A stretch of 42,122 nt of DNA from an uncultured Lachnospiraceae bacterium (GTDB lineage: Bacteria > Bacillota > Clostridia > Lachnospirales > Lachnospiraceae). Below are positions 4-17,979 of the stretch, piece by piece (position 1 is the first letter of the stretch; each line of letters opens with the position of its first letter). A program made the position numbers and the translations under genes. Location: positions 1-42,122 of the forward strand of contig CANQPM010000025.1 of the NCBI GenBank assembly GCA_947625775.1, in the 5' to 3' direction. A model generated the notes under the pieces. The model ran no database searches and was not told where the DNA came from. It saw only the letters and a list, made by a program, of their open reading frames with translations.

Positions 4-75
4 GGCTCCATGGTCAAGCGGTTAAGACATCGCCCTTTCACGGCGGTAACACGGGTTCGATTCCCGTTGGAGTCA
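4..75 (+). tRNA. tRNA-Glu (anticodon TTC)
   Basis: A full cloverleaf is visible. The acceptor arm GGCTCCA pairs with TGGAGTC at the 3' end, the T-loop is GGTTCGATTCC, and the anticodon loop CTTTCAC gives TTC, which reads Glu codons. The CCA end is not encoded. It is followed 29 bases later by tRNA-Cys, so the two are probably parts of one tRNA transcript that begins upstream of the window. Confidence 0.95.
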
Positions 76-104
76 TTATTTAAGTTAAATGTATATATAT
101 ATGC

Positions 105-176
105 GGCGCAGTAGCCAAGTGGTAAGGCGTGGGTCTGCAACACCCTGATGCACCGGTTCAAATCCGGTCTGCGCCT
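105..176 (+). tRNA. tRNA-Cys (anticodon GCA)
   Basis: The acceptor arm GGCGCAG pairs with CTGCGCC, the T-loop is GGTTCAAATCC, and the anticodon loop CTGCAAC holds GCA at 137-139, which reads Cys codons. The CCA end is not encoded. An intrinsic terminator follows directly, so this is the last gene of the tRNA transcript. Confidence 0.95.
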
Positions 177-365: not shown

Positions 366-395
366 TTGAACAGTTGCATATCGATATGGTATTAT
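366..395 (+). promoter_or_regulatory. Probable sigma-A promoter of the zinc-ribbon/kinase gene run
   Basis: TTGAAC at 366-371 and TATTAT at 390-395 are separated by 18 bases. This would give a 5' leader of about 45 bases before the start codon at 447. A TATAAT-like string overlaps the -10, so the exact register is uncertain. Confidence 0.5.
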
Positions 396-446
396 AATAA
401 TGTTTTTGATAAACAAATGTATAAGACGGTTTAGGAGGTAATAAAA

Positions 447-986
447 ATGACATGTCCAAAATGTGGCGCGCAGCTTGCTGATGGCAGCAGCTTTTGCACA
501 AGCTGCGGTAACTATCTGGCGAATAACGCGCAGCAGACAAACCAACCAAACACAGCCCCAAATAACAATATGAATAATATGGGAAACATGAACAATATGG
601 GAAGTGTTAATATGGGGGCGCAGCAGGTGTATTACGCAAGCCCTACAGACCACACGGCGGAGTTTTCGGCAAAGGACATTTCCGATAATAAGGTAATGGC
701 GATGGTGCCATATTTATTGGGAGTGTTTGGGATTATCATAGCGCTGCTTGCTTCAAGGGAGTCTGAGTTTACATATTTTCATGTGCGTCAGGCATTGAAG
801 CTTACCGTAGTTAATACGCTTTTAACGATTTGTTCTTTGGTTTTGTGCTGGACTGTTATTGTGCCGATTGCTGGCGGCATTTGCGCTGTTATTATATTTG
901 TGCTCAGGATAATAGCCTTCTTCCAGGTTTGCTCAGGAAAGGCAAAAGAGCCTGCGATTATCAGCAGCTTAGGATTTTTGAAATAG
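447..986 (+). CDS. Zinc-ribbon membrane protein (DUF4870-like)
   Basis: 179 residues. The N-terminus is a treble-clef type zinc ribbon (CPKCG, then CTSCG about 14 residues later). An Asn/Met-rich low-complexity linker (about 25-55) and a C-terminal half with three hydrophobic segments follow. The spacing and the FTYFHVRQALKL stretch between helices resemble DUF4870-type small membrane proteins. The start is supported by AGGAGGT eight bases upstream. It is the first gene after the promoter at 366 and is followed by a strong terminator, so it may be made in excess of the downstream kinase. The zinc ribbon faces the cytoplasm if the helices follow the positive-inside rule. Function is unknown; a shared partner with the other zinc-ribbon proteins downstream is an inference. 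Confidence 0.8.
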   Translation: MTCPKCGAQLADGSSFCTSCGNYLANNAQQTNQPNTAPNNNMNNMGNMNNMGSVNMGAQQVYYASPTDHTAEFSAKDISDNKVMAMVPYLLGVFGIIIALLASRESEFTYFHVRQALKLTVVNTLLTICSLVLCWTVIVPIAGGICAVIIFVLRIIAFFQVCSGKAKEPAIISSLGFLK

Positions 987-998
987 TGTTTGTTGATT

Positions 999-1037
999 GC
1001 TATAGGATGAACTGCAGGCTTCGTCCTATAGCTTTTT
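999..1037 (+). terminator. Intrinsic terminator between the first zinc-ribbon gene and the kinase gene
   Basis: A 13-bp stem (GCTATAGGATGAA against TTCGTCCTATAGC, one G-T pair) with an 8-base loop is followed by TTTTT. It lies inside the gene run, 34 bases before the kinase start. I see no new promoter between it and the kinase, so it probably acts as a partial terminator. Confidence 0.8.
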
Positions 1038-1070
1038 AAATAATTTTATGGTGATGGAGAAAACGGACTT

Positions 1071-3335
1071 ATGAAAGACGTAAGGCTTTGCCCAAATTGT
1101 CATAGAGAAATAGGCGCAGATGATAAATTCTGCCCATATTGCGGCAGCAATTTGAGCGGTACGCATGCAGGCGCGCACCAGCTTCAGACAAATATGGTGC
1201 TGAACGGCAGATACCGTATTGAACGCGTTATTGGTGAGGGAAATTTTGGAATTACATACTTAGCGGGGGATATTACGCTGCAGATGAAGGTGGCGGTAAA
1301 AGAGTTTTATCCTAAAGGGTATGTGACGCGCGAAAGCATGAACTCTCAGCACATAACAATATATGAAGGAAATAAAAGCGAGTATATACATAAGTGGCGC
1401 AGGGACTTTATCAATGAGGCGCGAAATCTTGCAAAGCTGTCTGGACTTACTGGCATAGTTGAAGTAAGGGATTATTTTGAGCAAAACGGTACGGCATATA
1501 TAGTAATGGAATATCTTGAAGGCGACGACCTTGGCGCGTACATCGAAAAGCATGGCTACACTAAGCCGAATGACGCGCAGCTTGGGCTTGGCAAGAGGAT
1601 TGCCATGGAGCATGCAAAGCGGATTATGGAGCCTGTAATTCTTGCGCTTGAAAAGGTTCATGAAGCGGGAATGGTACACAGGGACATAAGCCCCGACAAT
1701 ATGAAATTCAATATAAACGGAGATTTAAAGCTGTTTGACTTTGGCGCGGCGCGTGAGGCAGACTTGGCAGGGACAAATGAGAAGACAGTCATGCTAAAGC
1801 TTGGATATGCGCCCGAGGAGCAGTACAGAAAATTAGGAAATCAAGGACCGTGGACAGACGTTTATGCGCTGTGCGCGACTATATATAAATGTATAACGGG
1901 TGTCATACCTGTGGAGGCATCTGAAAGGACATATCAGGATACTCTGAAAAAACCAAGCGAGCTCGGAATTGAGATTAGCAGGAGTGATGAAGATGCGCTT
2001 ATGATGGGGCTTGCCGTATATGCGGACAAGCGCATAAAAGATATGAAGGCGCTTCATATGGCATTATATAATGGCGCTGTGCAGCAGCCAAAAACAATAC
2101 TTACGCCTCCGCAAATGCAGGTTGTCACTCCAGCGCAGGTTATTACTCCAGGGCAGGTTATTACTTCGGGGCAGACAGATAAGAGAAGAAAAAAGAGCGG
2201 CTTAAAGATCGCAGTAGCAGTTGCGGCGGTTTTAGCAGTGCTTGCGGCAGCAGGGACAGCGGCATATATTCTGCTGCCTGATTTGCTTGCCACGGGAAGC
2301 CTTGGGAAGGAAGCGCGCGAGGAGGACATTGATAGCGAGGACATAGACGGCGATGACGAGGAAACTGGCGCAGAGGAGGAGAGCAGCGCAGAGGAGGACG
2401 AGCTTATAGCCGAGCTTCAGGAGATGCTTGACAGTCAGGAGTATGAGGATTTAATAGAAGAAATATTAGGGCTTGATGAGGACGACCTTACTGACGGACA
2501 GGCAGAGGCGTCAAACGACCTGCTTTCACAGGCGATTGAAGCGCATCTTAGCCAGCGTTTTGACGAGGCTGACGGGTTGGCGCAGTCAGGGGATTATGAT
2601 GGGGCATTTGCCGTATTAGATGAGGAGGCGGCATACCGTGATGAGCTGGCGGAAGACAAAAAAGCAGAGGATTATATTGACAGTCAGGTGATTGCAGATA
2701 AGCATGATGAACTTTTGCAGAAATATTCAAAATATGTTTCATCAAAGGCTGGCGAGTATGCTGACACGGCAAACGAAATGGGCATAGAAGCTCTTTTTGC
2801 AAATGCAGACAAATATTTTGCGGATCAGGAGGAATACGAGAATACCAAAATTAAGGCTTACAGCGCGCTCGTTTTGAGCCGTATAAATCAGATGAACAAT
2901 CAGGGTGAAAGTCCTAAGCAGATTATGGATTATATTGAAGAAAACAGGAGTATGACGCAGAACAACTGTTGGGTGCTCGAAATGTGGGACTTTTTCTATT
3001 CCCAGTATTGCGGCGGCGCTCCGTCAATATGGTCAGGCGTGGTCAATAATGTTTCCAATAGCGGATATATTCTTGACTACAGCGATTCGAGCGAGCTGTC
3101 GGCGTATGATTTGCATCAGCTGTCGGCATATGAGCTGCGTATGGCAAGATATGAGATATATGCAAGGCATGGACGCATCTTTGAGGATCAGGGCGTAAAT
3201 GACTATTTCTCAAATTATGCATGGTATAAGCCGCAGTATGAAGCGGTTGACTTTGATGAGTCTTCACTGTCAGATACGGAAAAGAAAAACATTGAAACCA
3301 TATTAGCCTACGAAGTGAGCATGGGCTATAGGTAG
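1071..3335 (+). CDS. Membrane-anchored zinc-ribbon Ser/Thr protein kinase with extracellular YARHG domain
   Basis: 754 residues, predicted to phosphorylate Ser/Thr of cytoplasmic partners. A zinc ribbon (Cys7, 10, 21, 24) precedes a complete Hanks-type kinase domain: glycine loop GEGNFG (55-60), VAVKEF with Lys77, catalytic HRDISPDN (203-210), DFG (223-225) and APEE (247-250). A Gln/Thr/Pro-rich linker and one membrane helix (about 379-402) follow. Outside the cell come a very acidic stretch, a helical region and a C-terminal YARHG-type domain (about 681-745). The catalytic residues are intact. It heads a run containing two PP2C phosphatases and a degenerate paralogue (11783-13852) with the same zinc-ribbon and kinase layout. 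Such receptor kinases usually sense the envelope through the outer domain; the ligand here is unknown. Confidence 0.9.
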   Translation: MKDVRLCPNCHREIGADDKFCPYCGSNLSGTHAGAHQLQTNMVLNGRYRIERVIGEGNFGITYLAGDITLQMKVAVKEFYPKGYVTRESMNSQHITIYEGNKSEYIHKWRRDFINEARNLAKLSGLTGIVEVRDYFEQNGTAYIVMEYLEGDDLGAYIEKHGYTKPNDAQLGLGKRIAMEHAKRIMEPVILALEKVHEAGMVHRDISPDNMKFNINGDLKLFDFGAAREADLAGTNEKTVMLKLGYAPEEQYRKLGNQGPWTDVYALCATIYKCITGVIPVEASERTYQDTLKKPSELGIEISRSDEDALMMGLAVYADKRIKDMKALHMALYNGAVQQPKTILTPPQMQVVTPAQVITPGQVITSGQTDKRRKKSGLKIAVAVAAVLAVLAAAGTAAYILLPDLLATGSLGKEAREEDIDSEDIDGDDEETGAEEESSAEEDELIAELQEMLDSQEYEDLIEEILGLDEDDLTDGQAEASNDLLSQAIEAHLSQRFDEADGLAQSGDYDGAFAVLDEEAAYRDELAEDKKAEDYIDSQVIADKHDELLQKYSKYVSSKAGEYADTANEMGIEALFANADKYFADQEEYENTKIKAYSALVLSRINQMNNQGESPKQIMDYIEENRSMTQNNCWVLEMWDFFYSQYCGGAPSIWSGVVNNVSNSGYILDYSDSSELSAYDLHQLSAYELRMARYEIYARHGRIFEDQGVNDYFSNYAWYKPQYEAVDFDESSLSDTEKKNIETILAYEVSMGYR

Positions 3336-3356
3336 GGTGATTGGAAGGAACCGCTT

Positions 3357-5006
3357 ATGAAAAAAAATACGCCAGTGATTATCCTTATAATCAGTATCTG
3401 CGTTATTGAAATATGCGTCATTATTATAGGATATAAGGCAATATCAGACAAGGTTAAAAAAACTGATGAAACCGTACAGGATTATCAGGAGGAGGATAAC
3501 GAAGAACATAAAGATGAAGATGAGGAGAAGACCGAGCCTCCTAAAAGACCTGCGGATGCGCAAGATGAGGAGCTGCTTGAACGTGCAATAACCGCCGCCG
3601 CAGAGGGCGGTGAGGAAAATGAGCTGTCGGCGCTGGAGCTTTTTGAGGCCGCGGCGCAGCAGGGCAATTCGGACGCGCAGTTTTTTGCGGGCGAGATGTA
3701 TCTGCAGGGCATAGGCGCACAGGAAGATTTAGGAAAAGCGGCGGATTACATTCAGATGTCATACGAGCAGGGCAATAAAAAGGCGTTTGATATTTATGCC
3801 AAGATGTGTTTTATGGGGTGCGGGAGCATTGCACAGGATTATGAGAAGGCGGCTGCCATATTTTGCCTTTTGAGCGATGAGGACGCTGAGGCATCATATA
3901 TGCTAGGGCTTATGCATACATTTGGGATGGGAGTGCCGACGGCGTATGACACGGCCGAAAGGTATCTTATCAAATCGGCTGAGCAGGGATATGAGGGAGC
4001 TGAAGCATTTCACCAGACTATGGCGCCATGGGTTACGGGGGCAGAGGACAGAGAAATACAGTATATTCAGCTGCCAGCGCCAGTATCTGAGACAGAGTAC
4101 AGCGGCGGTTTAGCAGAAAAGCTTGATGAGTACGCACAAACGCTTGCAGAGACAGAGACGTATGCGGCATTTGACGAGGAGAAGTCGGCAATTGGGAAAA
4201 TGGACATTTCAGTGGCGTCAAATATTACAATTTTTGGGAAAAACAACTGGCTGTTTATGCAGAATCCAAATGACGGCAGCTCGTACCACGATTATGTCGG
4301 GGACAACGCATTCACGGAGGAGGAGATGGCATCTATTGCCAAACGCCTTACAAAGCAAAAGGAGGACGCTGAGAAGACGGGCAAGGAGTTTGCGCTGCTC
4401 ATCATACCCAATAAGGAGGTAATCTATTCTGAAAATATGCCGACGTACATAGAGCGCGTAAGCGAGGTAACGCGCACGGACAAGCTGGTGGAATACCTGA
4501 GAAGCAATACGGAGCTTGACATAGTTTATCCTAAAGAGCTTTATAATCAGTACAAAGATGACTACCAGCTCTATTATCAGACGGACAGCCATTGCAATAT
4601 GCAGGGGAGCTTTGTTGCCGTAGCGGAGCTTATGAATTTGAAGTACCAAAAACAGCTTTCCCTGGAAAATACACGGTTTGACATACATATGAATAATTAC
4701 TGCGGTGACTTGGGCGTTATGCTTGGCAGACAGGACAGATATTCGGTAGACAGAGTGTATTTTCTGCCTGCGTCCGCTGCGGGCGAGGAGGACAGGACGG
4801 AGGCTTCGCTGCTTTTGATAGGCGATTCGTTTAGCGAGTTTTTAAACACAGAGTTTTCTTATTTCTTTGACGGCGGAGTAGAGCATGTCATGGTCATGGA
4901 TTACGGGTATGACTATTACGAGGCTGCGAAATCCGCGCTTTCTCAGACGGACGCGGATTTGGTGGTGTGGGAATGCGCCGAGAGATATATTGATCGGCTA
5001 AGGTGA
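3357..5006 (+). CDS. Membrane-anchored Sel1-repeat and SGNH (AlgX/DHHW-like) protein
   Basis: 549 residues. An N-terminal signal anchor (about 5-25) leads into a Glu/Asp-rich linker. Sel1-like helical repeats follow (about 90-215, seen as A-x-x-G-x-M-Y-x-x-G and A-x-x-Y-x-x-S-A-E-Q-G patterns). The C-terminal half resembles AlgX/AlgJ and DHHW proteins, SGNH-fold enzymes that O-acetylate exported polysaccharides. The TDSHCN stretch (Asp410, His412) and GDSF (Asp490, Ser491) would supply the catalytic triad in unusual order, as in AlgX. It lies 21 bases after the kinase gene and is translated from an AAGGA site. An acetyl transfer or esterase role on a wall or capsule polymer is inferred from family resemblance. 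Confidence 0.75.
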   Translation: MKKNTPVIILIISICVIEICVIIIGYKAISDKVKKTDETVQDYQEEDNEEHKDEDEEKTEPPKRPADAQDEELLERAITAAAEGGEENELSALELFEAAAQQGNSDAQFFAGEMYLQGIGAQEDLGKAADYIQMSYEQGNKKAFDIYAKMCFMGCGSIAQDYEKAAAIFCLLSDEDAEASYMLGLMHTFGMGVPTAYDTAERYLIKSAEQGYEGAEAFHQTMAPWVTGAEDREIQYIQLPAPVSETEYSGGLAEKLDEYAQTLAETETYAAFDEEKSAIGKMDISVASNITIFGKNNWLFMQNPNDGSSYHDYVGDNAFTEEEMASIAKRLTKQKEDAEKTGKEFALLIIPNKEVIYSENMPTYIERVSEVTRTDKLVEYLRSNTELDIVYPKELYNQYKDDYQLYYQTDSHCNMQGSFVAVAELMNLKYQKQLSLENTRFDIHMNNYCGDLGVMLGRQDRYSVDRVYFLPASAAGEEDRTEASLLLIGDSFSEFLNTEFSYFFDGGVEHVMVMDYGYDYYEAAKSALSQTDADLVVWECAERYIDRLR

Positions 5007-5025
5007 CACAGGGAGGAACACATGA

Positions 5026-6321
5026 ATGAATTTTGAAACTCCGAAATATTATGGAAAATTAAAAAGATGCGCCGCAATGATATTATTACTTGGTCTGTCT
5101 TTTACCGTGCAGACAGGGCAAGTGTACGCCGCGCCAAATAATGGCAATGCCGCGGCGGAGACGGAGGAGGAAATCACGCAGGCTGGCCTGTATATTGTAT
5201 CACAGGACGGAATGGGTGATTTCACTACGATTCAGGCGGGAGTTGACGCTGTACAGTCGGGCGATACATTGCTGATTTGCCCTGGCGTGTATGAGGAGAG
5301 CGTGGAGGTTTTAAATAAGACGGTAAACCTTGTCGGGTGGGACAGGGATACCTGCATTATAAGATATAATGCATCAGGATATGCCAAAGCGCCGCTTATT
5401 TTTAGCGCAGGCGATGTGGAAAATCTTACAATATACGGTTATGGCGGAGAGACGCAGGAGCAGGAAAGCGTGATTGCGCTTACTGAGATTTATGGCAATG
5501 AAAACAGTACGGTTGATGAGATTGCACAGTGGCAAAGCATGTTTTCAGGGTACGCAGTCCATATTGACAGCAATTATTTGTATGGCAAAAATGTGCATAT
5601 GAAAAACTGTAAAATTATTTCCGACAATAATTGCTGCGTGGGCATTGGCGGCAGGGGCGAGAGTTCGGTCGTGCTTGAACAGTGCGAGCTTGTGGCAAAC
5701 GGCATGGGAGGGTGCATTTATTATCATAATACTGATGAGGAAGCTTTTGGCGGGGAGGCGTACTTTACGTTGAGGGATTGCGTGTTAAAAAACTACAGAT
5801 GTCCATATGTGATTTCAATGCATTCCACGGGTGAATGTAATCGTGTATATTTGACTTTTCAGAATAATCATGTAAGCACTGTGGCTTATGAAGCAAGGCA
5901 TATATATAATTTGACAAACATGAACACTATGTTTGACGTGGAGCTGATGGAAAAGCTTGAAAAAAGCGATGCGCTTTATACAGTGGGATATAGCACAAGC
6001 CTAAAAAAGTCAGGTCTGATAACGCATTATGACATAAATAAAAGCTATGAATATATGGAAATGATTGATAATGCGCCAAAGGATAGGCAGGCGCTGCAGC
6101 TGCCAGAAGGCATTTCATATATATCGTTTGCTGATAATGAGCCTCATTACATAGAGCAGGAGAGCCGTCCTGATGTAAAGGCGCGGAAAAGATGCGTGAT
6201 TGACATTTATAATAAAAATCAGGTGACAGGCAGCGGCTGGTGCGGATTGAACGACATATACCTGACGCCTGAAAGCTATGGAAACACATTGATAGAAATG
6301 AACTATCCAATTATGAATTAG
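5026..6321 (+). CDS. Secreted right-handed beta-helix (pectinesterase-like) protein
   Basis: 431 residues. The signal peptide has a hydrophobic core at about 15-30 and probable cleavage near VYA-A (36). The mature protein begins with a stretch typical of pectinesterase-type beta-helices (QDGMGDFTTIQAGVDAVQSG, then CPGVYEE). Short beta-rich coils continue to about residue 300. The catalytic Asp pair of true pectin methylesterases is not evident, so it may be a polysaccharide-binding relative. The first ATG after the ribosome site (5022) runs into a stop after four codons, so the ATG at 5026 is used. It lies 19 bases after the SGNH gene. Confidence 0.7.
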   Translation: MNFETPKYYGKLKRCAAMILLLGLSFTVQTGQVYAAPNNGNAAAETEEEITQAGLYIVSQDGMGDFTTIQAGVDAVQSGDTLLICPGVYEESVEVLNKTVNLVGWDRDTCIIRYNASGYAKAPLIFSAGDVENLTIYGYGGETQEQESVIALTEIYGNENSTVDEIAQWQSMFSGYAVHIDSNYLYGKNVHMKNCKIISDNNCCVGIGGRGESSVVLEQCELVANGMGGCIYYHNTDEEAFGGEAYFTLRDCVLKNYRCPYVISMHSTGECNRVYLTFQNNHVSTVAYEARHIYNLTNMNTMFDVELMEKLEKSDALYTVGYSTSLKKSGLITHYDINKSYEYMEMIDNAPKDRQALQLPEGISYISFADNEPHYIEQESRPDVKARKRCVIDIYNKNQVTGSGWCGLNDIYLTPESYGNTLIEMNYPIMN

Positions 6322-6342
6322 AATTTATTGAGGAGGAAGAAA

Positions 6343-7833
6343 ATGCAGGATTATTTTGATCCAAGTACAGGAGAGCTTATAGGAGGGGACATAGGCGGCA
6401 CAGGCAATATGGGTAATACAGGCAGTACGGACGGCACGGGCAGTATGCCATATGCTTCGTCCCCGGCGGCAAACGTTAATATGCCAGTACAGCCGCCTAA
6501 AAAGAAAGGCTTAGGGCTTTGGATAGGCGTAGGCTGTGGAGCAGTAGTCATAGCAGCGGCAGCGGCTGTCATAGCAGTGAAGCTATTCTCTAACCCTGCC
6601 GTAAAAATCGGCACTGCCATGGCAAATACTTTTAAGGAAACGAGCCAAATACAGAAGGATTTAGATATTATGGGCATGCTTTCCGATGGAAACGCGGGCG
6701 TGCAGATGGATATGGAATATGACCATCAGACATTAAGCGTAAGCGGCGCGTATGACTTTTCAAGTAAGCGTAAGGCAGTAAATGTGAAGGTCAATGGCGA
6801 TTTTGACGACATTGGCGATTTTGAGGCGGATTTTACTGCGCAGCTTGACAAGGATAAGTTGGCAATGAGCCTGAAGCCTGCCAGCGATGACATACTTACA
6901 TATTATTATACAAAGGATAACAAGGGCGATTTTATGGACGCGCTTGAGGACGAGGATATTGATATAGATGAATTGAACGCTTCCCTTGAAAAGCTCTACG
7001 AGCTTGATTTGAGTGGCGCCAGTACATATAAGGATATGTGGGATGCAGCTGCCGATGAGGTTTTAGAGGAAGTAAAGAAAATTGAAATCAAAAAAATAGA
7101 TAAAAAAGAAGAATTTAAGATTGATGGAAAAAAGCGGAGCTGCGGCGGTTATCAGATGGAGATTACCGAAGATAACATGGAGGCAATAATTGACGTAGCC
7201 AGAGAGGCGTTTGAAAAAGAACTGGACGATATAAGCGCCGATGGGGAAATCAGAGATGCTCTTGATGACGTGGTTGATGAGGTCTTTGATGAACTGGAGG
7301 ACTCAATTTCAGGCATGAAGGATATTGACCTGTCTTTATATATGTATAATAAGCAGATTGCCTGCATACGTATAGAGGTGGCGCGCAGCACAGTGGACAT
7401 TATTTTCCATGGGGGTGATTATCCTGCCCAGAATGTTGAAATAGTGCTGGACGGCAATGGGTTTGACGATGAAACAGTGCTTGAGCTGACGGGCGAAACA
7501 AAAGACAAGACTGAGACAATGGAGCTTTCAGTGTTTGGGGAATCGGTTTTTGAGCTGGAGTATGATACAAAGAGTGGTGAATTATCCTTAACAAGCGATG
7601 AGGCAGATCTGGAGTTTGAGGCGGTAGTAAAGAGAACCAAGGAAAGCCTAACCGTGGAGATTGATGATATAGATGATGTTTCACTGACGTTTGAAATAAC
7701 AGACAATGGCGAGATTAAGACATTAAAGGGCGATGAAATTAATTTGGGCGAGGCTGATGAGGACGAGCTTCAGGATTATGCAGAGGATATTCTTAAGGAG
7801 TATGATGATATATTCTATTATTTGATGTACTGA
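6343..7833 (+). CDS. Membrane-anchored extracellular protein of unknown function
   Basis: 496 residues. I chose ATG 6343 because AGGAGG lies at 6331-6336; an in-frame TTG at 6328 would overlap that site. A short cytoplasmic Gly/Thr/Met-rich segment and a PPKKK stop-transfer signal precede one membrane helix (about 57-80). The roughly 415 residues outside are very acidic, with alternating strands and repeated Asp/Glu-Asp pairs. The layout suggests an extracytoplasmic beta-rich domain (LolA/lipoprotein-like by impression only). I do not recognise the family. It lies 21 bases after the beta-helix gene and 57 before the first PP2C gene, in the same likely transcript. Confidence 0.75.
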   Translation: MQDYFDPSTGELIGGDIGGTGNMGNTGSTDGTGSMPYASSPAANVNMPVQPPKKKGLGLWIGVGCGAVVIAAAAAVIAVKLFSNPAVKIGTAMANTFKETSQIQKDLDIMGMLSDGNAGVQMDMEYDHQTLSVSGAYDFSSKRKAVNVKVNGDFDDIGDFEADFTAQLDKDKLAMSLKPASDDILTYYYTKDNKGDFMDALEDEDIDIDELNASLEKLYELDLSGASTYKDMWDAAADEVLEEVKKIEIKKIDKKEEFKIDGKKRSCGGYQMEITEDNMEAIIDVAREAFEKELDDISADGEIRDALDDVVDEVFDELEDSISGMKDIDLSLYMYNKQIACIRIEVARSTVDIIFHGGDYPAQNVEIVLDGNGFDDETVLELTGETKDKTETMELSVFGESVFELEYDTKSGELSLTSDEADLEFEAVVKRTKESLTVEIDDIDDVSLTFEITDNGEIKTLKGDEINLGEADEDELQDYAEDILKEYDDIFYYLMY

Positions 7834-7890
7834 TAATATGCGGGCGGCATAATGCCAATAAGGACATAGGGCGGAAACGGAGATAAAGAG

Positions 7891-8646
7891 ATGGGAGTAA
7901 ATATTAAGGGCGGTTTTGCCACAGATGCGGGCTTGCGTGACAGCATAAACCAAGATGCCATTCTGTTGCGGGCGCTGGAGCAGAATGGAGAATGGTTTGT
8001 GGCGGGAGTGGTTTGTGACGGAATAGGCGGGCTTGAAAGGGGCGAGGACGCATCTAGGCTTGTAATAGGCGCGTTTGATGAGTGGTTCAGGGGAATATGC
8101 CAATGGATTAGGATTGACACGATTGATTTCAACGCTTTGCTGCAGCACGCAACAGAAGCCATAAAACAGTGGAACAAGAAGGTGCGCCAATTCTGCGAAG
8201 GGGAAAATATCAAGAGCGGAACCACAATGTCCATGCTTGTGCTGATACGCGGCTATTATTTTATACTGCATGTAGGCGACAGCAGGGTATATTGTTATAA
8301 TCAGCTTTTAACACAGCTTACCATAGATGATACTGCAAGGAAGCTCGTAAACGGCAGGGAAAGAGATTTGCTCAGCAATTTTCTGGGAAAATCTGACGAG
8401 TTAAAATATAAGGTCTATACGGGCGAGATTAAGAAGGGCGATATTTTTATTTTCTGTTCAGACGGATTTTACAGAAATCTTGCCCCGCAGGATTTGAATC
8501 CCTGCATAACAAAATATCAGTCTGGAATGTCTGTCAGGCAGATTTGCGTTGATGCGATTAACCTTATGAAAATGCGTCAGGAGCAGGACAATATATCGGT
8601 TGGAATAATTTTTACAGAGCACACTAAGAGGGGATTATTTAGATAA
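7891..8646 (+). CDS. PP2C-family Ser/Thr protein phosphatase (first copy)
   Basis: 251 residues, the usual size of a stand-alone bacterial PP2C domain, cytoplasmic. The metal-binding motifs are present in order: NQDA (Asp22), CDGIGG (Asp43, Gly44), GDSRVY in the middle, CSDGFY near residue 190 and QDNISV near the C-terminus. It should remove phosphate from Ser/Thr using two Mn/Mg ions, and the natural counterpart is the kinase at 1071-3335. It is preceded by GGAGA and sits 20 bases before the double zinc-ribbon gene. It is clearly different in sequence from the second PP2C at 11037, so the two may act on different substrates. Confidence 0.9.
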   Translation: MGVNIKGGFATDAGLRDSINQDAILLRALEQNGEWFVAGVVCDGIGGLERGEDASRLVIGAFDEWFRGICQWIRIDTIDFNALLQHATEAIKQWNKKVRQFCEGENIKSGTTMSMLVLIRGYYFILHVGDSRVYCYNQLLTQLTIDDTARKLVNGRERDLLSNFLGKSDELKYKVYTGEIKKGDIFIFCSDGFYRNLAPQDLNPCITKYQSGMSVRQICVDAINLMKMRQEQDNISVGIIFTEHTKRGLFR

Positions 8647-8666
8647 TTGTATTGGAGGATAACTAT

Positions 8667-11021: not shown

Positions 11022-11036
11022 AGGGGTAGTTTTATC

Positions 11037-11762
11037 ATGATTTTGACTGCAAAGTACACTGACATAGGCGGACGCGGGATAAACGAGGACAGTGCGGGCA
11101 TATATGTAAAAGAGGGCTGCGTCTGCGCCGTGGTGGCTGACGGAGTAGGAGGGCATGGCGGCGGCGATAAGGCTTCGCGCTATGCCGCCGCGATGATAAA
11201 CAGCCTTTACAAAAATTCTGATACGCCCTTTCCCAAGCAGCAGGTGCAGGGCTGGTTTCAGCAGATAAATGATGATGTATGCAGCCATCAGACAAAGGAA
11301 TGTAAGATGCGCACGACTTTGAGCGTTCTCTTTGCGGATAATCAAAAATGTTTCTGGGCATATGTGGGTGACAGCAGGATTTATCATTTTGCGGATAAGA
11401 GACTGGCGGGAATGACGGTGGATCACAGCGTATCGCAGATGGCGGTATTTTCGGGGGAGATTACCCAGGCGCAGGTGCGTCACCATGCTGACAGAAATAA
11501 GCTTATACGCTCTATAGGCAATGATTCTGCTGTGAAGGTGGACGTGTCGGATTATTTTGACGTAGGTATGGGCGAGCATGCGTTTCTGCTGTGCACTGAC
11601 GGTTTCTGGGAGTATGTGCTTGAAGATGAGATGGAGCAGGCTTTGAGGGATAGTGACAATCCCGTAAAATGGCTTGATAAAATGTCTGTCATTATTAAAA
11701 GCAGGGTCCCTGAAAACAATGACAATAATACGGCAGTCGCCGTATGGATAAAAAATAATTAA
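11037..11762 (+). CDS. PP2C-family Ser/Thr protein phosphatase (second copy)
   Basis: 241 residues, a single cytoplasmic PP2C domain. Motifs are NED (16-18), ADGVGGHGGGDKAS (Asp35 and Gly36 bind metal), GDSRIYHF, LLCTDGFWEYV and a terminal NNDNNTAVAV that supplies the last acidic ligand. This is the classical Stp/PrpC layout, closer to consensus than the copy at 7891. The start has AAAGGGG about ten bases upstream. It lies 15 bases after the double zinc-ribbon gene and 20 before the pseudokinase, so it is probably co-transcribed and opposes the kinase at 1071. Confidence 0.92.
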   Translation: MILTAKYTDIGGRGINEDSAGIYVKEGCVCAVVADGVGGHGGGDKASRYAAAMINSLYKNSDTPFPKQQVQGWFQQINDDVCSHQTKECKMRTTLSVLFADNQKCFWAYVGDSRIYHFADKRLAGMTVDHSVSQMAVFSGEITQAQVRHHADRNKLIRSIGNDSAVKVDVSDYFDVGMGEHAFLLCTDGFWEYVLEDEMEQALRDSDNPVKWLDKMSVIIKSRVPENNDNNTAVAVWIKNN

Positions 11763-11782
11763 GAGAGACAGGTGAAGACAAA

Positions 11783-13852
11783 ATGAATTGTCCCAAGTGC
11801 AACAAAGAAGTGGGGGCTAATGATAAGTTCTGCCCATATTGCGGCAGCAGGCTTGATGCCGCAGCTGCTATGCCAAATGCGCTTCAGTTAAACACTATGC
11901 TGAAGGAGAAATACAGAATTGAGCGCGTATTGGAGGAGGGCACAAGCCAGATTAAATATTTAGCGCAGGACATTACCCTGCAGGTTTATGTGACTGTGAA
12001 TGAATTTTTCCTAAAGGATTATGTCAGCAGGGATTACAGCTCAAAACAGATGACAGTGCGCGATGCTGCAAAGGCGGGGCTGGTAAGCCAATGGAGGAAT
12101 GCATTTTTAGACAGCGTAAGAAATAAGACCAGACTTGGAAGCCTTGCGGGAATTGCAGATATAAGGGACTGCTTTGAGCAGAACGGTACAATCTATGTCG
12201 TAACAGAGTGGCTGAGCGGCGATGACCTGCAGACCTTCTTAAACAGGCAGGGATATACAAAGCCAAATGATGCCATGTATGGGATTAAAAATAGGATTGA
12301 TATAGATACGGCAAAGCAAATTTTTGAGCCGATAATTATTTCTGTTGCCAAATTGCATGATGCGGGCGATGCTTATGGAAATATATCATTTGGCAGCATG
12401 AAATTTGGAAACAATGGAATGTTAAAGCTGTCGGGCTTTCTGTGGGATATAAATGACACAAATAATGCTGTAGCGCGTGTGCAGGCAGACGTTTATTCAA
12501 TATGCGCAGCAATGTATAAATGCATAACCGGCATAGAGCCGTCAAATACTGGCGCTTTAAGGACGCCAAGTGAGCTGGGCATTGCAATCGACAAGTATGA
12601 TGAAGCCGCTATTATGATGGGGCTTGCTCTTGATTTGGGCAGGCGTTTTGCAAATGTGGCTGTTCTGCACAAAGCATTATACAACAGGCCGCAGAAGCCG
12701 CAGGCTGTTCAGGGCGGCGTGAATAATCAGGTTGGGCAGATTAATCAAGCAGGCCAATATAATCAAACTAATTCAATCTATCCCTCTGGCACAGAGCGCA
12801 AAAAGAAGTCAAAAGCGAAGACGGTTATCATAATACTTGTGATAATTGCTTTACTGGCTGGGATAGGCGCTGCGGGCGTTGTGTTTCTGCCAGACTTGCT
12901 TTCAGGAGGGCTGCCGTTTTTGGGAGAGGACAGTGAAGATGACGAAAATAGTGAGACAGAGGAAAATAGCGAGACAGAGGAAAACGGTGATGAGGACCAG
13001 TCATCAGAGGCAGAGCTTGACGACAGTGATATAGAATTATATGAATCCATACTTGAGCAGGCAGAAGCTGATGAGAGTGTTGAGAACCAAAAGGACGCGC
13101 TGGAGCAGCTTATAAGCTTTGTATCAGACAATAACGCAGCCGAGTATGCCTCAGAGGATATAGCTGATATATTTGATACATATAAAACAGGCGTGTTAGA
13201 CCATATAGCGCTTCTTGACAGTCAAAATGTGCTTCCTGCAATTTATACTCAGATGAATATAGAGCTTATGGAGGCGCTTGATCTTGCTTCACGAATAGGA
13301 GAGCAGGATATTGAGGTTGACAGTGATGACCTGCAGAGTAAATCAGACACATTAAAGACAGACTATAAACAGCGTCTGATTGACAATTTTGACAATGAGG
13401 CGCAGGAGGAAATAAACACAAATGGGGTTATTTCCAGAAGCGTGCTCTGGGCGGCTATGGACGGCGCGGACCAGACAGGTCTGTATGACGAAGCCGATTA
13501 CAGCGATCCGCTTAGATTAAGGTATATTTTGGCGTTGACATATCATGTTGACAGCGAGCTTGACAGCTTAGGCAGGGAGGAAGCGGTAGCAAGGCTGTAT
13601 GAGGTTATTGGGAGTGCTGATTACAATCCGCTTCTGCTGTATTATCTTGGCGACCTAAACGGCGACGAGTATGCGGAGGGCTTTTATCAGTACGCTTCAG
13701 ATATTCTGGCGGACAATGGATATGACTTTTACAATATGACGACAAATGAGAAGCGTAACTTTATGTATTACTATTATACTGACGACAGCTATGCCGAGCT
13801 TCGTGACGAGCTGCTGACATATATGAGAGATAATTTTACACAGACTCAGTAG
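11783..13852 (+). CDS. Zinc-ribbon membrane pseudokinase
   Basis: 689 residues, a paralogue of the kinase at 1071. The zinc ribbon (Cys3, 6, 17, 20) and the stretch up to about residue 300 align readily with the active kinase. The catalytic positions are lost: the glycine loop is EEGTSQ, the ATP-binding Lys is Asn73 (VTVNEF), HRDISPDN has become YGNISFGS (200 is Asn), DFG has become GFL (218-220), and the APE segment is absent. A linker rich in Asn/Gln precedes a membrane helix (about 346-365) and an acidic, helical extracellular part without the YARHG domain. It is full length without frameshifts, so it is kept for a non-catalytic role such as scaffold or allosteric partner. Its own catalytic activity is unlikely. 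Confidence 0.88.
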   Translation: MNCPKCNKEVGANDKFCPYCGSRLDAAAAMPNALQLNTMLKEKYRIERVLEEGTSQIKYLAQDITLQVYVTVNEFFLKDYVSRDYSSKQMTVRDAAKAGLVSQWRNAFLDSVRNKTRLGSLAGIADIRDCFEQNGTIYVVTEWLSGDDLQTFLNRQGYTKPNDAMYGIKNRIDIDTAKQIFEPIIISVAKLHDAGDAYGNISFGSMKFGNNGMLKLSGFLWDINDTNNAVARVQADVYSICAAMYKCITGIEPSNTGALRTPSELGIAIDKYDEAAIMMGLALDLGRRFANVAVLHKALYNRPQKPQAVQGGVNNQVGQINQAGQYNQTNSIYPSGTERKKKSKAKTVIIILVIIALLAGIGAAGVVFLPDLLSGGLPFLGEDSEDDENSETEENSETEENGDEDQSSEAELDDSDIELYESILEQAEADESVENQKDALEQLISFVSDNNAAEYASEDIADIFDTYKTGVLDHIALLDSQNVLPAIYTQMNIELMEALDLASRIGEQDIEVDSDDLQSKSDTLKTDYKQRLIDNFDNEAQEEINTNGVISRSVLWAAMDGADQTGLYDEADYSDPLRLRYILALTYHVDSELDSLGREEAVARLYEVIGSADYNPLLLYYLGDLNGDEYAEGFYQYASDILADNGYDFYNMTTNEKRNFMYYYYTDDSYAELRDELLTYMRDNFTQTQ

Positions 13853-13870
13853 AAGGATATTGATTAAGCT

Positions 13871-15010
13871 ATGGATAAAAAAGATAAATGGCGCATAGCT
13901 GTGTTGCTGACGGCAATTATATTGCTGGCGGCAGCTGTAGTTATACTGGTAAAAAAAAGGGCGGACGTTTCGGAACACGGCGAGGAAACGCAGACGAGCG
14001 CTGAAACCCAGACGCAGGAGGAGATACAGGAAAGCACTGAAACCCAGACACAGGAGGAGAGCACAGAGCCTTCAAAGACTGTGGATTATCCTGCCCCCGA
14101 TTATGATTTTCAGATAGAGGAGATAACGATAGAGCTGCCTAGGATAAGCCGTGAGTATGCCCTTGCGTGGGTGAGCGATTTGCACTTAATTACGGATAAG
14201 GAGCCTGCGCAGGATGTTATGGAAGAATTTTTGGAATCGATGCAGACACGGTATGAAACCATGTTTGTAAATCCTACGCAGCCTGAGGACGAGGTAAGGC
14301 ACAGTGATGAGCTCCTGCCTGAAATAATAAAATATCTTAATTATACAAAAATAGACGGAAGAAACTTTGACGGAATAATTTTTGGCGGGGATCTGCTTGA
14401 CTACTGCAGCAGGTCAAATATTGACGCATTTAAGGAGGAGTATGCAAAGCTCAATCCCGATATTCCCAAGCTCTATATCAGGGCGGATCATGATTATGGC
14501 TTCTGGTATGGGGGCGATGCTTTCACAGAGGAAACGGCTTGGGAGATGCACAAGGAGATAGACGGAGACGACCTAAGTGGAAAGTGCCTTGAGTTTGACG
14601 ATTTCGTCATAATAGGCGTGAACCGTTCAAACAAGGATATGTCCCAGCAGCAGTATGAAATAATAATGCAGCAGTATGACAATGCAAAGCAGGAGGATAA
14701 GCCTGTAATAATAGCTACTCATGTACCATATGAAGCTTATGATGACAGCCTTAGGGAATATTCCATGATGGTAAGGAACAAGGTTTATTACTGGACTTAT
14801 TTTTCGAACGAGGGCGATTACAAGCCTAATGACTTGATGGGACAGTACTTTAGCGAGGTCTATTCTGCTGATACGCAGGTGGAAAATGTGCTGGCGGGGC
14901 ATTTGCACGCGGCATGGGACGGGAAGATTTCCGAGCAGGTTTCGCAGCATATCTTTGCCCCTGCGTTTATGGGATTTATTGGCGTTATCCATGTAGTGCC
15001 ATCGGCATAA
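13871..15010 (+). CDS. Membrane-anchored calcineurin-like metallophosphoesterase
   Basis: 379 residues. An N-terminal anchor (about 9-28) and a Glu/Thr/Gln linker containing ETQTQEE repeats (40-66) hold an extracellular metallophosphoesterase domain. Metal motifs are SDLH (Asp103, His105), GGD (Asp174), an ADHD at 205-208 where the family norm is GNHD, ATHVPYE and AGHLHAAW near the C-terminus. The Asn to Asp change in the third motif is unusual and may alter activity. The substrate is unknown; secreted members act on nucleotides, phosphodiesters or cell-wall polymers. It lies 18 bases after the pseudokinase, probably in the same transcript. Confidence 0.85.
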   Translation: MDKKDKWRIAVLLTAIILLAAAVVILVKKRADVSEHGEETQTSAETQTQEEIQESTETQTQEESTEPSKTVDYPAPDYDFQIEEITIELPRISREYALAWVSDLHLITDKEPAQDVMEEFLESMQTRYETMFVNPTQPEDEVRHSDELLPEIIKYLNYTKIDGRNFDGIIFGGDLLDYCSRSNIDAFKEEYAKLNPDIPKLYIRADHDYGFWYGGDAFTEETAWEMHKEIDGDDLSGKCLEFDDFVIIGVNRSNKDMSQQQYEIIMQQYDNAKQEDKPVIIATHVPYEAYDDSLREYSMMVRNKVYYWTYFSNEGDYKPNDLMGQYFSEVYSADTQVENVLAGHLHAAWDGKISEQVSQHIFAPAFMGFIGVIHVVPSA

Positions 15011-15097
15011 TATGTGTATATTTTATCGCAGGCGGCTGTGAAAAGTTTTTTAAAACAGCTGGGCAGCAGAACATAATGTGAAAGCAGGAAAATAAGA

Positions 15098-16147
15098 ATG
15101 AATAAGGCGTCATTTAGAAAAATGATAAGGCTGCTTGTAAGCGCGGCGATGATCATATGCTTTATGTCGGAGACTAAAGCATATGCGGAGGAGGACAGCG
15201 GGAAAAGCGTAATCGAAGAATATGACACAAGTGTCATATATGATATGGGACATATAAAGGCGGAGCAGCTCCCTGTAAGTGGGGAATATTATGAAAATCC
15301 ATCAAATCCGTACAGTTACCTGAAAGCGCCATCGCAAATTATTCATATAGGAAATTACTATTTTATCGCGGACTGTTACAATAACCAGATTTTGTACACG
15401 TCAAAGCTTGGAGCCGATATAAAGGAATGGCGGGTTATGACAAGCAACGTAAGCCTTCCGCATGCTATAGCAGGCGACGGCAGCGTATATCTGGTGACAG
15501 ATACGGAAAATAATCGCGTGCTTGTATTCGAGAGGAAAAACGGCGGATTTCAGAATACGCAGAAGTTTGAAAACATAGGCAAGCGTCCTCATTATGTAAA
15601 ATATGACTGGGAAACAAAAGCATTTTATGTATGGAGCTCAATGACGGGTGAAATGTATATCATAAGGCGAGAGCAGGGCACAAACACTGTTTTTCTTGAC
15701 GAGGTGAGGTGCATTAAGGAGCTGCAGGGAGTGTATGTGCGCTCATTTACTATTGCGGGCGAGCAGATTTTATTTCCGTCGGGAGATAACTCGAGCATTA
15801 TAATAGCCGACAAAAATACGCTTGAGGTGCAGATGAGATTTCCCGTGGTTTCGCAGATAGCGGGAATGGCGCAGATTGTGCCTATTGGAAGTTATTTTTA
15901 TTTGACAGTTATTACTGATTCAAATTATAATCAGAGCATGGCGACCATAATCAGGACAAAGGATTTGTCAAGCCTTGCAGATGGCGTATATGAAGAAATA
16001 TATGATAAATTTCAGTCAAAGGGCATACCTTACTGTATGGAAAATATGAACGGCATGTACTATATTGCCTGTCCGGGACCTTCAAAAAGCATATGGCATT
16101 TTGGGGTTGCGAATGACGTGATTAATAATGTGGGAGCAGTTTATTAA
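15098..16147 (+). CDS. Secreted NHL/propeller-like protein
   Basis: 349 residues. The signal peptide (about 1-31, ending AYA) is followed by repeating strand blocks such as IHIGNYYFIADCYNNQILYTS, HAIAGDGSVYLVTDTENNRVLVFE and HYVKYDWETKAFYVWSS. The pattern of D-x-x-N-N-x-[IV]-L matches NHL-type beta-propeller blades. No catalytic motif is seen. It lies 87 bases after the metallophosphoesterase gene and is the last gene of the run; the next gene has its own promoter. A binding or sensing role outside the cell is an inference from the fold. Confidence 0.7.
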   Translation: MNKASFRKMIRLLVSAAMIICFMSETKAYAEEDSGKSVIEEYDTSVIYDMGHIKAEQLPVSGEYYENPSNPYSYLKAPSQIIHIGNYYFIADCYNNQILYTSKLGADIKEWRVMTSNVSLPHAIAGDGSVYLVTDTENNRVLVFERKNGGFQNTQKFENIGKRPHYVKYDWETKAFYVWSSMTGEMYIIRREQGTNTVFLDEVRCIKELQGVYVRSFTIAGEQILFPSGDNSSIIIADKNTLEVQMRFPVVSQIAGMAQIVPIGSYFYLTVITDSNYNQSMATIIRTKDLSSLADGVYEEIYDKFQSKGIPYCMENMNGMYYIACPGPSKSIWHFGVANDVINNVGAVY

Positions 16148-16238
16148 TGCAGAGTATGCATAATTGGCAATAAAAGGCAATTTACTTTGCATAAAATGAA
16201 AATTATTTAATTATACTAAAAATAGCTGTTTGCGCATA

Positions 16239-16267
16239 TTGACGAAATTTTGGCTAAATGATATACT
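16239..16267 (+). promoter_or_regulatory. Sigma-A promoter of the first DUF5722 gene
   Basis: TTGACG at 16239-16244, a 17-base spacer and TATACT at 16262-16267 form a near-consensus promoter. It gives a leader of about 60 bases before ATG 16334. With the terminator at 17947 it makes the gene a single-gene unit, separate from the kinase run. Confidence 0.8.
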
Positions 16268-16333
16268 GAATATGCTACACTGCGCTTTGGGGCGCGACAA
16301 AACAATCAACATTAAAAAGGTGGAGGAATGAGT

Positions 16334-17923: not shown

Positions 17924-17946
17924 TTAAATATAATAAAAATATGAGA

Positions 17947-17979
17947 GGGACACAGCCTTTAGGGTTGTGTCCCTGTTTT
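17947..17979 (+). terminator. Intrinsic terminator after DUF5722 paralogue 1
   Basis: An 11-bp stem (GGGACACAGCC against GGTTGTGTCCC, one G-T pair) with a 4-base loop is followed by TGTTTT. It lies 24 bases after the stop codon. Confidence 0.85.

What the first reader, a model, noticed from the sequence alone, without database searches (positions are those of the whole stretch)
366..16147. Candidate undescribed transmembrane kinase, pseudokinase and phosphatase system with zinc-ribbon adaptors
Seen: one strand-coherent run holding a complete zinc-ribbon receptor kinase, a full-length paralogous pseudokinase, two different PP2C phosphatases, two more zinc-ribbon membrane proteins, and five secreted or anchored proteins (Sel1-SGNH, beta-helix, unknown, metallophosphoesterase, propeller). 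Most gaps are 15-87 bases. Known: PASTA-type kinase operons usually hold one kinase and one PP2C. Inference: the cytoplasmic zinc ribbons may dock the parts together, the outer domains may sense or modify a wall or capsule polymer, and the two phosphatases may reset different outputs. I do not know a described system with this gene set.
Basis: partly seen in the sequence, partly recalled or inferred. Interest (0 to 1): 0.8.

Follow-up and report, generated by a model that had tools for sequence, protein, structure and literature searches.

The report
Kinase–phosphatase envelope module from secretion loci
A run of twelve genes in a bacterium of a gut family encodes a membrane kinase, a dead copy of it, two phosphatases and several proteins predicted to act outside the cell; in the closest relative found the same run is the tail of a type VII protein-secretion locus, so it is probably a phosphorylation switch for that machine or for the cell wall around it.

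Summary
The gene run is real: twelve co-directional genes (447-17923), one more than reported. All twelve recur in the same order and strand in one other species of the genus (G017). The pseudokinase has lost the VAIK lysine, HRD and DFG, yet its domain shows purifying selection. It is not a full-length paralogue: its front half groups with the neighbouring kinase, while its outer domain belongs to a helical family lying next to the metallophosphoesterase in 41 of 44 loci. That outer domain is on a kinase-less zinc-ribbon anchor in 35 of the 44; in the 9 with a kinase fold, PP2Cs (7 of 9) and a VWA-TM-FHA reader (6 of 9) are nearby, against 2 and 0 of 35. The main new fact lies outside the window: in G017 the run continues upstream into PP2C, VWA-FHA, WXG100, YukD, LytTR and an EssC-like ATPase. 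In five genus genomes the metallophosphoesterase lies 11-22 kb downstream of EssC, same strand. I read the run as a detached accessory module of a kinase-type T7SS, related to but distinct from published T7SSc-j. The window's own genome has its T7SS-like cluster on another contig, so the coupling there is inferred.

The parts
366..395 (+). promoter-like site upstream of g1 (TTGAAC-18-TATTAT, TG before the second hexamer)
   Evidence: consensus match only
447..986 (+). g1: zinc ribbon + DUF4870-like membrane protein, 179 aa
   Evidence: orthologue in G017
999..1032 (+). intrinsic-terminator-like stem (13 pairs + T run) between g1 and g2, conserved in G017
1071..3335 (+). g2: zinc ribbon - Ser/Thr kinase with intact Lys, HRD, DFG - TM - outer region with YARHG domain, 754 aa
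3357..5006 (+). g3: Sel1 repeats + ALGX SGNH domain (TDSH and GDSFS motifs), predicted secreted/anchored, 549 aa
5026..6321 (+). g4: pectinesterase-like beta-helix, 431 aa
   Evidence: below curated cut-off; homologues
6328..7833 (+). g5: TM + outer beta-rich domain of unknown family, 501 aa from TTG (ATG at 6343 likelier)
   Evidence: no family; model pLDDT 85
7891..8646 (+). g6: PP2C phosphatase, 251 aa, motifs present
11037..11762 (+). g8: PP2C phosphatase, 241 aa, motifs present
11783..13852 (+). g9: zinc ribbon - pseudokinase (K->N, HRD->YGN, DFG lost) - TM - all-helical outer domain, 689 aa
13871..15010 (+). g10: predicted secreted/anchored calcineurin-like metallophosphoesterase with DLH, GGDxxD, RADHD, THVP, GHLH, 379 aa
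15098..16147 (+). g11: predicted secreted NHL/propeller-like protein, 349 aa
   Evidence: homologues
16328..17923 (+). g12: DUF5722 (PF18989, 448.6 bits), predicted secreted, 531 aa; last gene of the conserved run
17946..17974 (+). terminator-like stem closing the run

Best explanation
The twelve genes are an envelope phospho-signalling and wall-modifying module that belongs, by origin and in several relatives by location, to a kinase-type T7SS of Lachnospiraceae. Shown: conserved synteny in one relative; intact kinase, PP2C and hydrolase motifs; a pseudokinase domain under purifying selection; linkage of the outer-domain/metallophosphoesterase core to EssC, WXG100 and YukD in several relatives; FHA readers beside the kinase form in 6 of 9 loci. 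Inferred: the outer helical/YARHG regions sense the state of a wall polymer. The active kinase g2 phosphorylates threonines that FHA proteins read (VWA-TM-FHA and the FHA domain of EssC; in this genome those on contig C20), licensing assembly or firing of the secretion machine. The two PP2Cs reset this. The pseudokinase g9 is a non-catalytic docking copy: inside it offers the same zinc-ribbon/kinase surface as g2, outside it carries the helical domain that partners the metallophosphoesterase and propeller. The outer enzymes (SGNH, beta-helix, metallophosphoesterase, DUF5722) trim or modify a wall or capsule polymer at that site. In the window's genome the module is physically detached from the T7SS genes.
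For: All 12 genes in order in G017. Upstream on the same strand there: PP2C, VWA-TM-FHA, DUF4176, two WXG100, LytTR, an EssC-like FtsK with FHA (1666 aa) and another FHA protein, plus YukD at C1:74256; the ATPase's best PDB sequence match is YukB. In 4 of the 6 genus genomes with both EssC-I (full-length match of 50% identity or more) and the metallophosphoesterase they share a contig, 11-22 kb apart, same strand, metallophosphoesterase downstream; EssC-II in G022 likewise (chance about 4e-7, ignoring shared descent and with the radius set from the data). L154 holds kinase, FHA, PP2C, FHA, PP2C, VWA-FHA, metallophosphoesterase, propeller, FHA, EssC, LytTR and WXG100 in one run. VWA-FHA in 6 of 9 kinase-type loci against 0 of 35 kinase-less; PP2C 7 of 9 against 2 of 35. 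SxxH and NG of the FHA site are kept in all 13 VWA-FHA rows compared (two rows are one G017 protein, two one G027 protein). Pseudokinase domain dN/dS about 0.12, synonymous changes near saturation.
Against: No window ORF of 90 aa or more matches the EssC, WXG100 or VWA-FHA profiles; the genome's T7SS-like cluster is on contig C20 with its own kinase, PP2C and VWA-FHA. YukD has no match in G000. The full run was seen in only 2 of 16 genus genomes with the metallophosphoesterase. Of those 16, 7 have no EssC match at E<=1e-30. Genus-level co-occurrence is modest (p about 0.03 for EssC-I, 0.05 for any EssC), and in G003 and G033 the two are on different contigs. In 35 of 44 outer-domain loci the anchor has no kinase, and only 4 of those 35 show WXG100 or EssC within about 10 kb. 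WXG100 and EssC alone do not separate the kinase-type from the kinase-less loci (p 0.09 and 0.37). The GR of the EssC FHA site is kept only in G017 among 6 rows with the domain. No substrate, interaction or transcript data.
Confidence: 0.5

Rival explanations
1. A free-standing envelope sensor and wall-modification system. The ancestral core is a zinc-ribbon anchor with the helical outer domain plus metallophosphoesterase plus propeller; kinase, pseudokinase and PP2C were added as a local feedback circuit, and its neighbourhood with T7SS genes reflects a shared island rather than shared function.
For: 35 of 44 outer-domain loci have kinase-less zinc-ribbon anchors, 29 of the 35 with a propeller gene, and 31 of the 35 show no WXG100 or EssC within about 10 kb; in several rumen-type Lachnospiraceae the core faces a g5-like gene and transporter-like ORFs instead; the window's copy has no T7SS gene at the locus.
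Against: FHA readers and PP2C track the kinase form closely; five genomes place the core downstream of EssC on the same strand; g2-, g4- and g5-like genes also sit inside EssC clusters without the metallophosphoesterase beside them (L032, L034).
Confidence: 0.37
2. A duplicated PASTA-kinase/PP2C (PrkC-PrpC type) operon that controls wall synthesis in the ordinary way.
For: The kinase's best NCBIfam match is PknB_PASTA_kin (128 bits, cut-off 450), and both PP2Cs match Stp1 below cut-off.
Against: No PASTA domain match in g2 or g9; a separate PP2C-kinase pair sits on contig C2 (L051), and its kinase has the longest branch of the kinase tree.
Confidence: 0.06
3. An anti-phage defence or conflict system.
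For: g2 and, weakly, g9 score against PADLOC kinase models such as mad6 and PD-T4-6, and g8 against PDC-M21C.
Against: The other seven of the ten proteins tested have no match at E<=1e-5 (g11 and g12 were not tested), and the outer-enzyme content does not fit.
Confidence: 0.03
4. A decaying duplicate operon in which the pseudokinase is a gene on its way out.
For: The three catalytic motifs of g9 are gone and its kinase domain evolves faster than that of g2 (69% against 89% identity).
Against: All 12 frames are open in two species (g12 of G017 is cut by the end of the stretch I took); dN/dS by NG86 is far below 1 for every gene, though synonymous changes are near saturation.
Confidence: 0.04

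Closest known systems
T7SSe / T7SSj (kinase-type type VII secretion systems; Garrett, Higginson and Palmer 2024, PMC11217815; outline with abstract, sections 7, 9, 14, 15 and find passages seen)
   Same: TM Ser/Thr kinase, PPM phosphatase, separate FHA protein, EssC ATPase with N-terminal FHA, WXG100, ubiquitin-like YukD protein: all seen in the linked form (G017).
   Different: The FHA reader is VWA-TM-FHA, not DUF6382-FHA; zinc-ribbon kinases and pseudokinases, two or more PP2Cs, metallophosphoesterase, SGNH and beta-helix proteins are added. Word counts in the main text were 0 for zinc, metallophosph, Lachnospir, Ruminococ, Roseburia and Blautia. TsxI and TsxK were not looked for.
T7SSb pseudokinase EssB/YukC
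   Same: Membrane pseudokinase with cytoplasmic dead kinase, one TM and a helical outer part; interacts with EssC (passages in PMC11217815 and PMC12599244; helical outer part from the abstract of PMC3694306 in the listings).
   Different: No PF10140 match over cut-off in the 11 genomes searched, this one included (one sub-threshold match in G003); the g9 kinase fold groups with the active kinase beside it.
PASTA kinase / PP2C operons (PrkC-PrpC, Stk1-Stp1)
   Same: TM Ser/Thr kinase with PP2C partner.
   Different: No PASTA match; kinase plus pseudokinase, two PP2Cs, zinc ribbons and several outer proteins.
YARHG-domain membrane kinases and zinc-ribbon YARHG proteins (Coggill and Bateman 2012, PMC3355149; parts 1 and 2 of 4 read)
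   Same: Kinase-TM-YARHG and zinc ribbon-TM-YARHG architectures, proposed to bind peptidoglycan or another outside ligand.
   Different: In the parts read the two are listed separately; here zinc ribbon, kinase and YARHG are in one protein with a set of partners.
AlgX-type SGNH O-acetyltransferases
   Same: g3 has the ALGX domain (PF16822) and Asp-x-His and Ser motifs (catalytic roles recalled).
   Different: No MBOAT partner in the run; an MBOAT and a GDSL protein lie near each other on contig C20.

Membership tests
Kinase-type T7SS (T7SSe/T7SSj) | EssC/TsxC ATPase at the locus | tested here: not met
   No window ORF of 90 aa or more matches the session's EssC profile. Met in the syntenic relative G017; the window genome's match is on contig C20.
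Kinase-type T7SS (T7SSe/T7SSj) | WXG100 protein (TsxA) at the locus | tested here: not met
   No window ORF of 90 aa or more matches the session's WXG100 profiles. Present in G017 and, by session profile, on C20.
Kinase-type T7SS (T7SSe/T7SSj) | ubiquitin-like TsxB/YukD (PF08817) | tested here: not met
   No match in G000 at E<=0.001; present near EssC in G017, G014, G021, G030, and in the genomes of L152 and L154.
Kinase-type T7SS (T7SSe/T7SSj) | TM Ser/Thr kinase (TsxD) and PPM phosphatase (TsxF) | tested here: met
   g2, g6, g8; orthology to TsxD/TsxF not tested.
Kinase-type T7SS (T7SSe/T7SSj) | DUF6382-FHA protein (TsxJ) | tested here: not met
   No FHA in the genes of the run; the linked relatives scanned have VWA-FHA without DUF6382 (G017; L152, L154, L187). 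DUF6382-FHA occurs elsewhere in the genus (L209).
Kinase-type T7SS (T7SSe/T7SSj) | TsxI and TsxK components | not tested
EssB/YukC pseudokinases | membership of PF10140 | tested here: not met
   No such match of g9 in Pfam at E<=0.05; no G000 match.
EssB/YukC pseudokinases | cytoplasmic pseudokinase - TM - outer helical domain | tested here: met
   Motifs lost; outer domain modelled all-helical, pLDDT 96.5. TM and sidedness read from the sequence, inferred.
PASTA kinase operon | PASTA repeats in the outer region | tested here: not met
   No PASTA match in g2 or g9.
YARHG kinases | kinase - TM - YARHG (g2) | tested here: met
   g2: PF00069 102 bits, PF13308 75.2 bits.
YARHG kinases | YARHG on the pseudokinase g9 | tested here: not met
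   No PF13308 match in g9.
AlgX-type O-acetylation | ALGX/SGNH domain with catalytic motifs | tested here: met
   PF16822 48.6 bits; TDSH and GDSFS; their catalytic role is recalled.
AlgX-type O-acetylation | MBOAT acyltransferase beside it | tested here: not met
   No MBOAT match among g1-g12.

The most novel reading that the evidence does not exclude
Lachnospiraceae have re-invented the EssB role of the type VII machine. Receptor kinases, some still active and others dead in at least two separate lines (YGN without DFG in g9; HQN and GFG in YARHG pseudokinases lying upstream of EssC with one gene between in L032, L034 and L036), dock the FHA domains of EssC and VWA-FHA proteins through zinc-ribbon/kinase surfaces. 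They thereby couple secretion to a dedicated set of outer wall-modifying enzymes, with paired PP2Cs as the off-switch. The window's module would be a copy that has moved away from its machine.
Probability: 0.2. Interest if true: 0.82.

Novelty: new variant of a known kind. Interest (0 to 1): 0.6.

Why it matters
Kinase-type T7SSs were proposed only recently from gene neighbourhoods, and how phosphorylation would act on them is open. This locus family shows natural swaps (kinase, pseudokinase or no kinase on the same outer domain beside the same hydrolase) that co-vary with PP2C and FHA readers, which makes the question testable by comparing relatives. It also ties candidate wall-modifying enzymes to such machines in a common gut family, and suggests a route from active kinase to receptor pseudokinase by in-operon duplication and domain swap.

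Tried and rejected

The 67 loci are the 66 plus the window trimmed to about 10 kb each side; 23 of the 67 have no outer-domain gene and were left out of the kinase/kinase-less comparison (one of them, L197, also gave no metallophosphoesterase ORF). L160 and L187 are from one genome; several relatives sit at contig ends. The kinase tree used 25 rows chosen by me from the 40, and the g9 branch is long (1.29). The chance figure treats genomes as independent and uses a radius (23 kb) taken from the data. The family-wide search found the metallophosphoesterase in 15 of 200 genomes.
Full report
What is there. The window is contig C25 of a 3.75 Mb genome in 42 contigs. Of the 66 named records found with the metallophosphoesterase, 50 carry the word Lachnospiraceae in their title. 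From 447 to 17923 there are twelve genes on the + strand with short gaps: g1 zinc ribbon/DUF4870-like; g2 zinc ribbon-kinase-TM-YARHG; g3 Sel1-ALGX; g4 beta-helix; g5 unknown; g6 PP2C; g7 double zinc ribbon with long outer domain; g8 PP2C; g9 zinc ribbon-pseudokinase-TM-helical domain; g10 metallophosphoesterase; g11 NHL-like; g12 DUF5722. TM segments are read from the sequence with a simple hydropathy script on the homologues. Then come sugar genes: FGGY kinase (matched at E<=1e-100 in 35 of 38 genus genomes) and, by my reading of the translations, an aldolase-type and two transketolase ORFs.

Conservation. In G017, another species of the genus, all twelve genes recur in order and on one strand, at about 60-88% protein identity over aligned columns (g12 is cut by the end of the stretch taken). 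Among the 16 genus genomes with the metallophosphoesterase I saw the full run only in these two (some are cut by contig ends). dN/dS (NG86) is far below 1 for all twelve, with synonymous changes near or past saturation; for the pseudokinase domain about 0.12 (0.214/1.844), for the g2 kinase domain about 0.03. A 13-pair terminator-like stem with a T run lies between g1 and g2 in both species, with 38 bases left before the g2 start in the window. My inference is that g2-g12 are reached by read-through, or from a promoter inside g1.

The pseudokinase. g2 keeps Lys, alpha-C Glu, HRD, Asn and DFG. g9 has N, S, YGN, S and no DFG at these places; its G017 orthologue has T, S, YGN, D and no DFG. The other seven distinct kinases fused to the same outer domain (L030, L152, L154, L160, L165, L173, L187) are intact. 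In a 25-row tree the two g9 kinase domains group with the two g2 domains (99/100), not with the seven; the g9 branch is long, so this is strong but not beyond doubt. The outer domain of g9 is that of the seven and of many kinase-less anchors. So g9 most likely arose when the g2 front half was copied onto an existing outer domain and then died as an enzyme. Separately, 5 of 9 distinct YARHG kinases in the loci held are dead in another way (HQN and GFG; L032, L034, L036, L038, L041).

The core. Of 67 metallophosphoesterase loci (66 plus the window), 44 carry the g9-type outer domain, and in 41 of the 44 it is the gene next to the metallophosphoesterase; 38 of the 44 have the propeller gene within the stretch. 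In 35 of the 44 the anchor has no kinase fold; in 9 it has one (the two pseudokinases included). The kinase form goes with PP2C (7 of 9 against 2 of 35, p 3e-5) and VWA-TM-FHA (6 of 9 against 0 of 35, p 1.2e-5; 7 of 9 if G017's longer stretch L029 is used). WXG100 (3 of 9 against 3 of 35, p 0.09) and EssC (1 of 9 against 1 of 35, p 0.37) within the flanks do not separate the two groups; either is present in 3 of 9 and 4 of 35. Two PP2Cs sit with one kinase in L152, L154, L160 and L187. The other 23 loci lack the outer domain: contig-edge cases and, mostly, distant metallophosphoesterase relatives.

The T7SS link. Upstream of g1 in G017, on the same strand, are a third PP2C (246 aa), VWA-TM-FHA (513 aa), a 223-aa protein, DUF4176, a 392-aa protein, two WXG100 proteins, a 116-aa and a 235-aa protein, LytTR, a 1666-aa FtsK/FHA protein and a 200-aa FHA protein, with YukD among them. 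The ATPase's best solved match is YukB (E 2.7e-141). EssC-I (full-length match, 50% identity or more) occurs in 7 of 38 genus genomes, six of which have the metallophosphoesterase (16 of 38 overall; Fisher p 0.03; any EssC match 9 of 14, p 0.05). In G017, G014, G021 and G030 (EssC-I) and G022 (EssC-II) the metallophosphoesterase lies 11-22 kb downstream of EssC on the same strand; in G003 and G033 the two are on different contigs. L154, from another genome, shows the fused arrangement in one run. YukC/EssB is missing over cut-off in the 11 genomes tried, with one sub-threshold match in G003. The window genome has one T7SS-like cluster, on C20, with its own TPR kinase, PP2C, VWA-FHA, zinc ribbons and MBOAT and GDSL proteins; its VWA-FHA is only 35% identical to G017's C1 copy, so the linked machine of G017 was not found in the assembly held.

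How it may work. Shown: parts, motifs, synteny, linkage. Inferred: g2 and relatives sense the wall outside and phosphorylate threonines read by FHA proteins; SxxH and NG of the FHA site (motif recalled) are kept in all 13 VWA-FHA rows compared, two pairs of rows being the same proteins, while the GR position varies in EssC. PP2Cs reset. g9 docks rather than phosphorylates, as EssB does in T7SSb (PMC11217815 and PMC12599244, passages). The outer proteins act on a polymer at the same place. The g9 outer domain is confidently modelled as all-helical (pLDDT 96.5) without a trustworthy structural relative. g5 is modelled at pLDDT 85 without a safe match.

What is known. Kinases, PPM phosphatases and FHA proteins in T7SS loci are published (T7SSc-j, PMC11217815: outline, sections 7, 9, 14, 15 and passages seen). 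YARHG kinases and zinc-ribbon YARHG proteins are published (PMC3355149, parts 1-2 of 4). A review of bacterial pseudokinases has no occurrence of zinc or YARHG (PMC12599244, passages only). No paper with this gene set was among those listed by searches, which cover only the open library and show capped lists. Verdict: a real, conserved combination that I could not find described, best filed as a new variant of kinase-type T7SS-associated signalling; the function is inferred.

Noticed in passing
window 999-1032 and L029:16707-16740: Conserved terminator-like stem between g1 and the kinase gene with little room for a promoter after it: possible read-through control of the whole run.
   Followed up: partly
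L032:9863-12064, L034:9515-11599, L036:8825-10993, L038:1-2133, L041:8993-11248: A second family of receptor pseudokinases (YARHG type, HQN and GFG), upstream of EssC with one gene between in the first three; possible EssB stand-ins.
   Followed up: partly
L054 and L205 (window genome, contig C20): T7SS-like cluster with EssC, WXG100-like ORFs, PP2C, TPR kinase, VWA-FHA, VWA, zinc ribbons, MBOAT and GDSL proteins.
   Followed up: partly
L049 and L050 (window genome, contig C27): Cluster with several kinase-like frames, two PP2C-like frames and FHA-domain frames.
   Followed up: no
L163, L164, L166, L170, L172, L175, L180, L181, L182: The kinase-less core faces a g5-like gene, in most with an ORF of about 406 aa, often one of 349 aa, a zinc-ribbon g7-like gene and a ~1600-aa ORF; in L130, the same contig as L170, these are ABC-2 and ABC transporter parts and an ALK_LTK_GRD-domain protein.
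   Followed up: partly
L209:12768-14315; also L210, L211: FHA-domain protein directly upstream of the FGGY sugar-kinase gene in three species; DUF6382-FHA (TsxJ-like) shown for L209.
   Followed up: partly
window 23881-24855: PD-(D/E)XK family transposase (PF12784) in a low-GC stretch.
   Followed up: no
window 26273-29522: Periplasmic-binding protein, FecCD permease and ABC ATPase: an iron-siderophore or cobalamin type importer by family.
   Followed up: no
window 4-176: tRNA-Glu and tRNA-Cys at the contig start, then a terminator-like stem at 179-210.
   Followed up: partly
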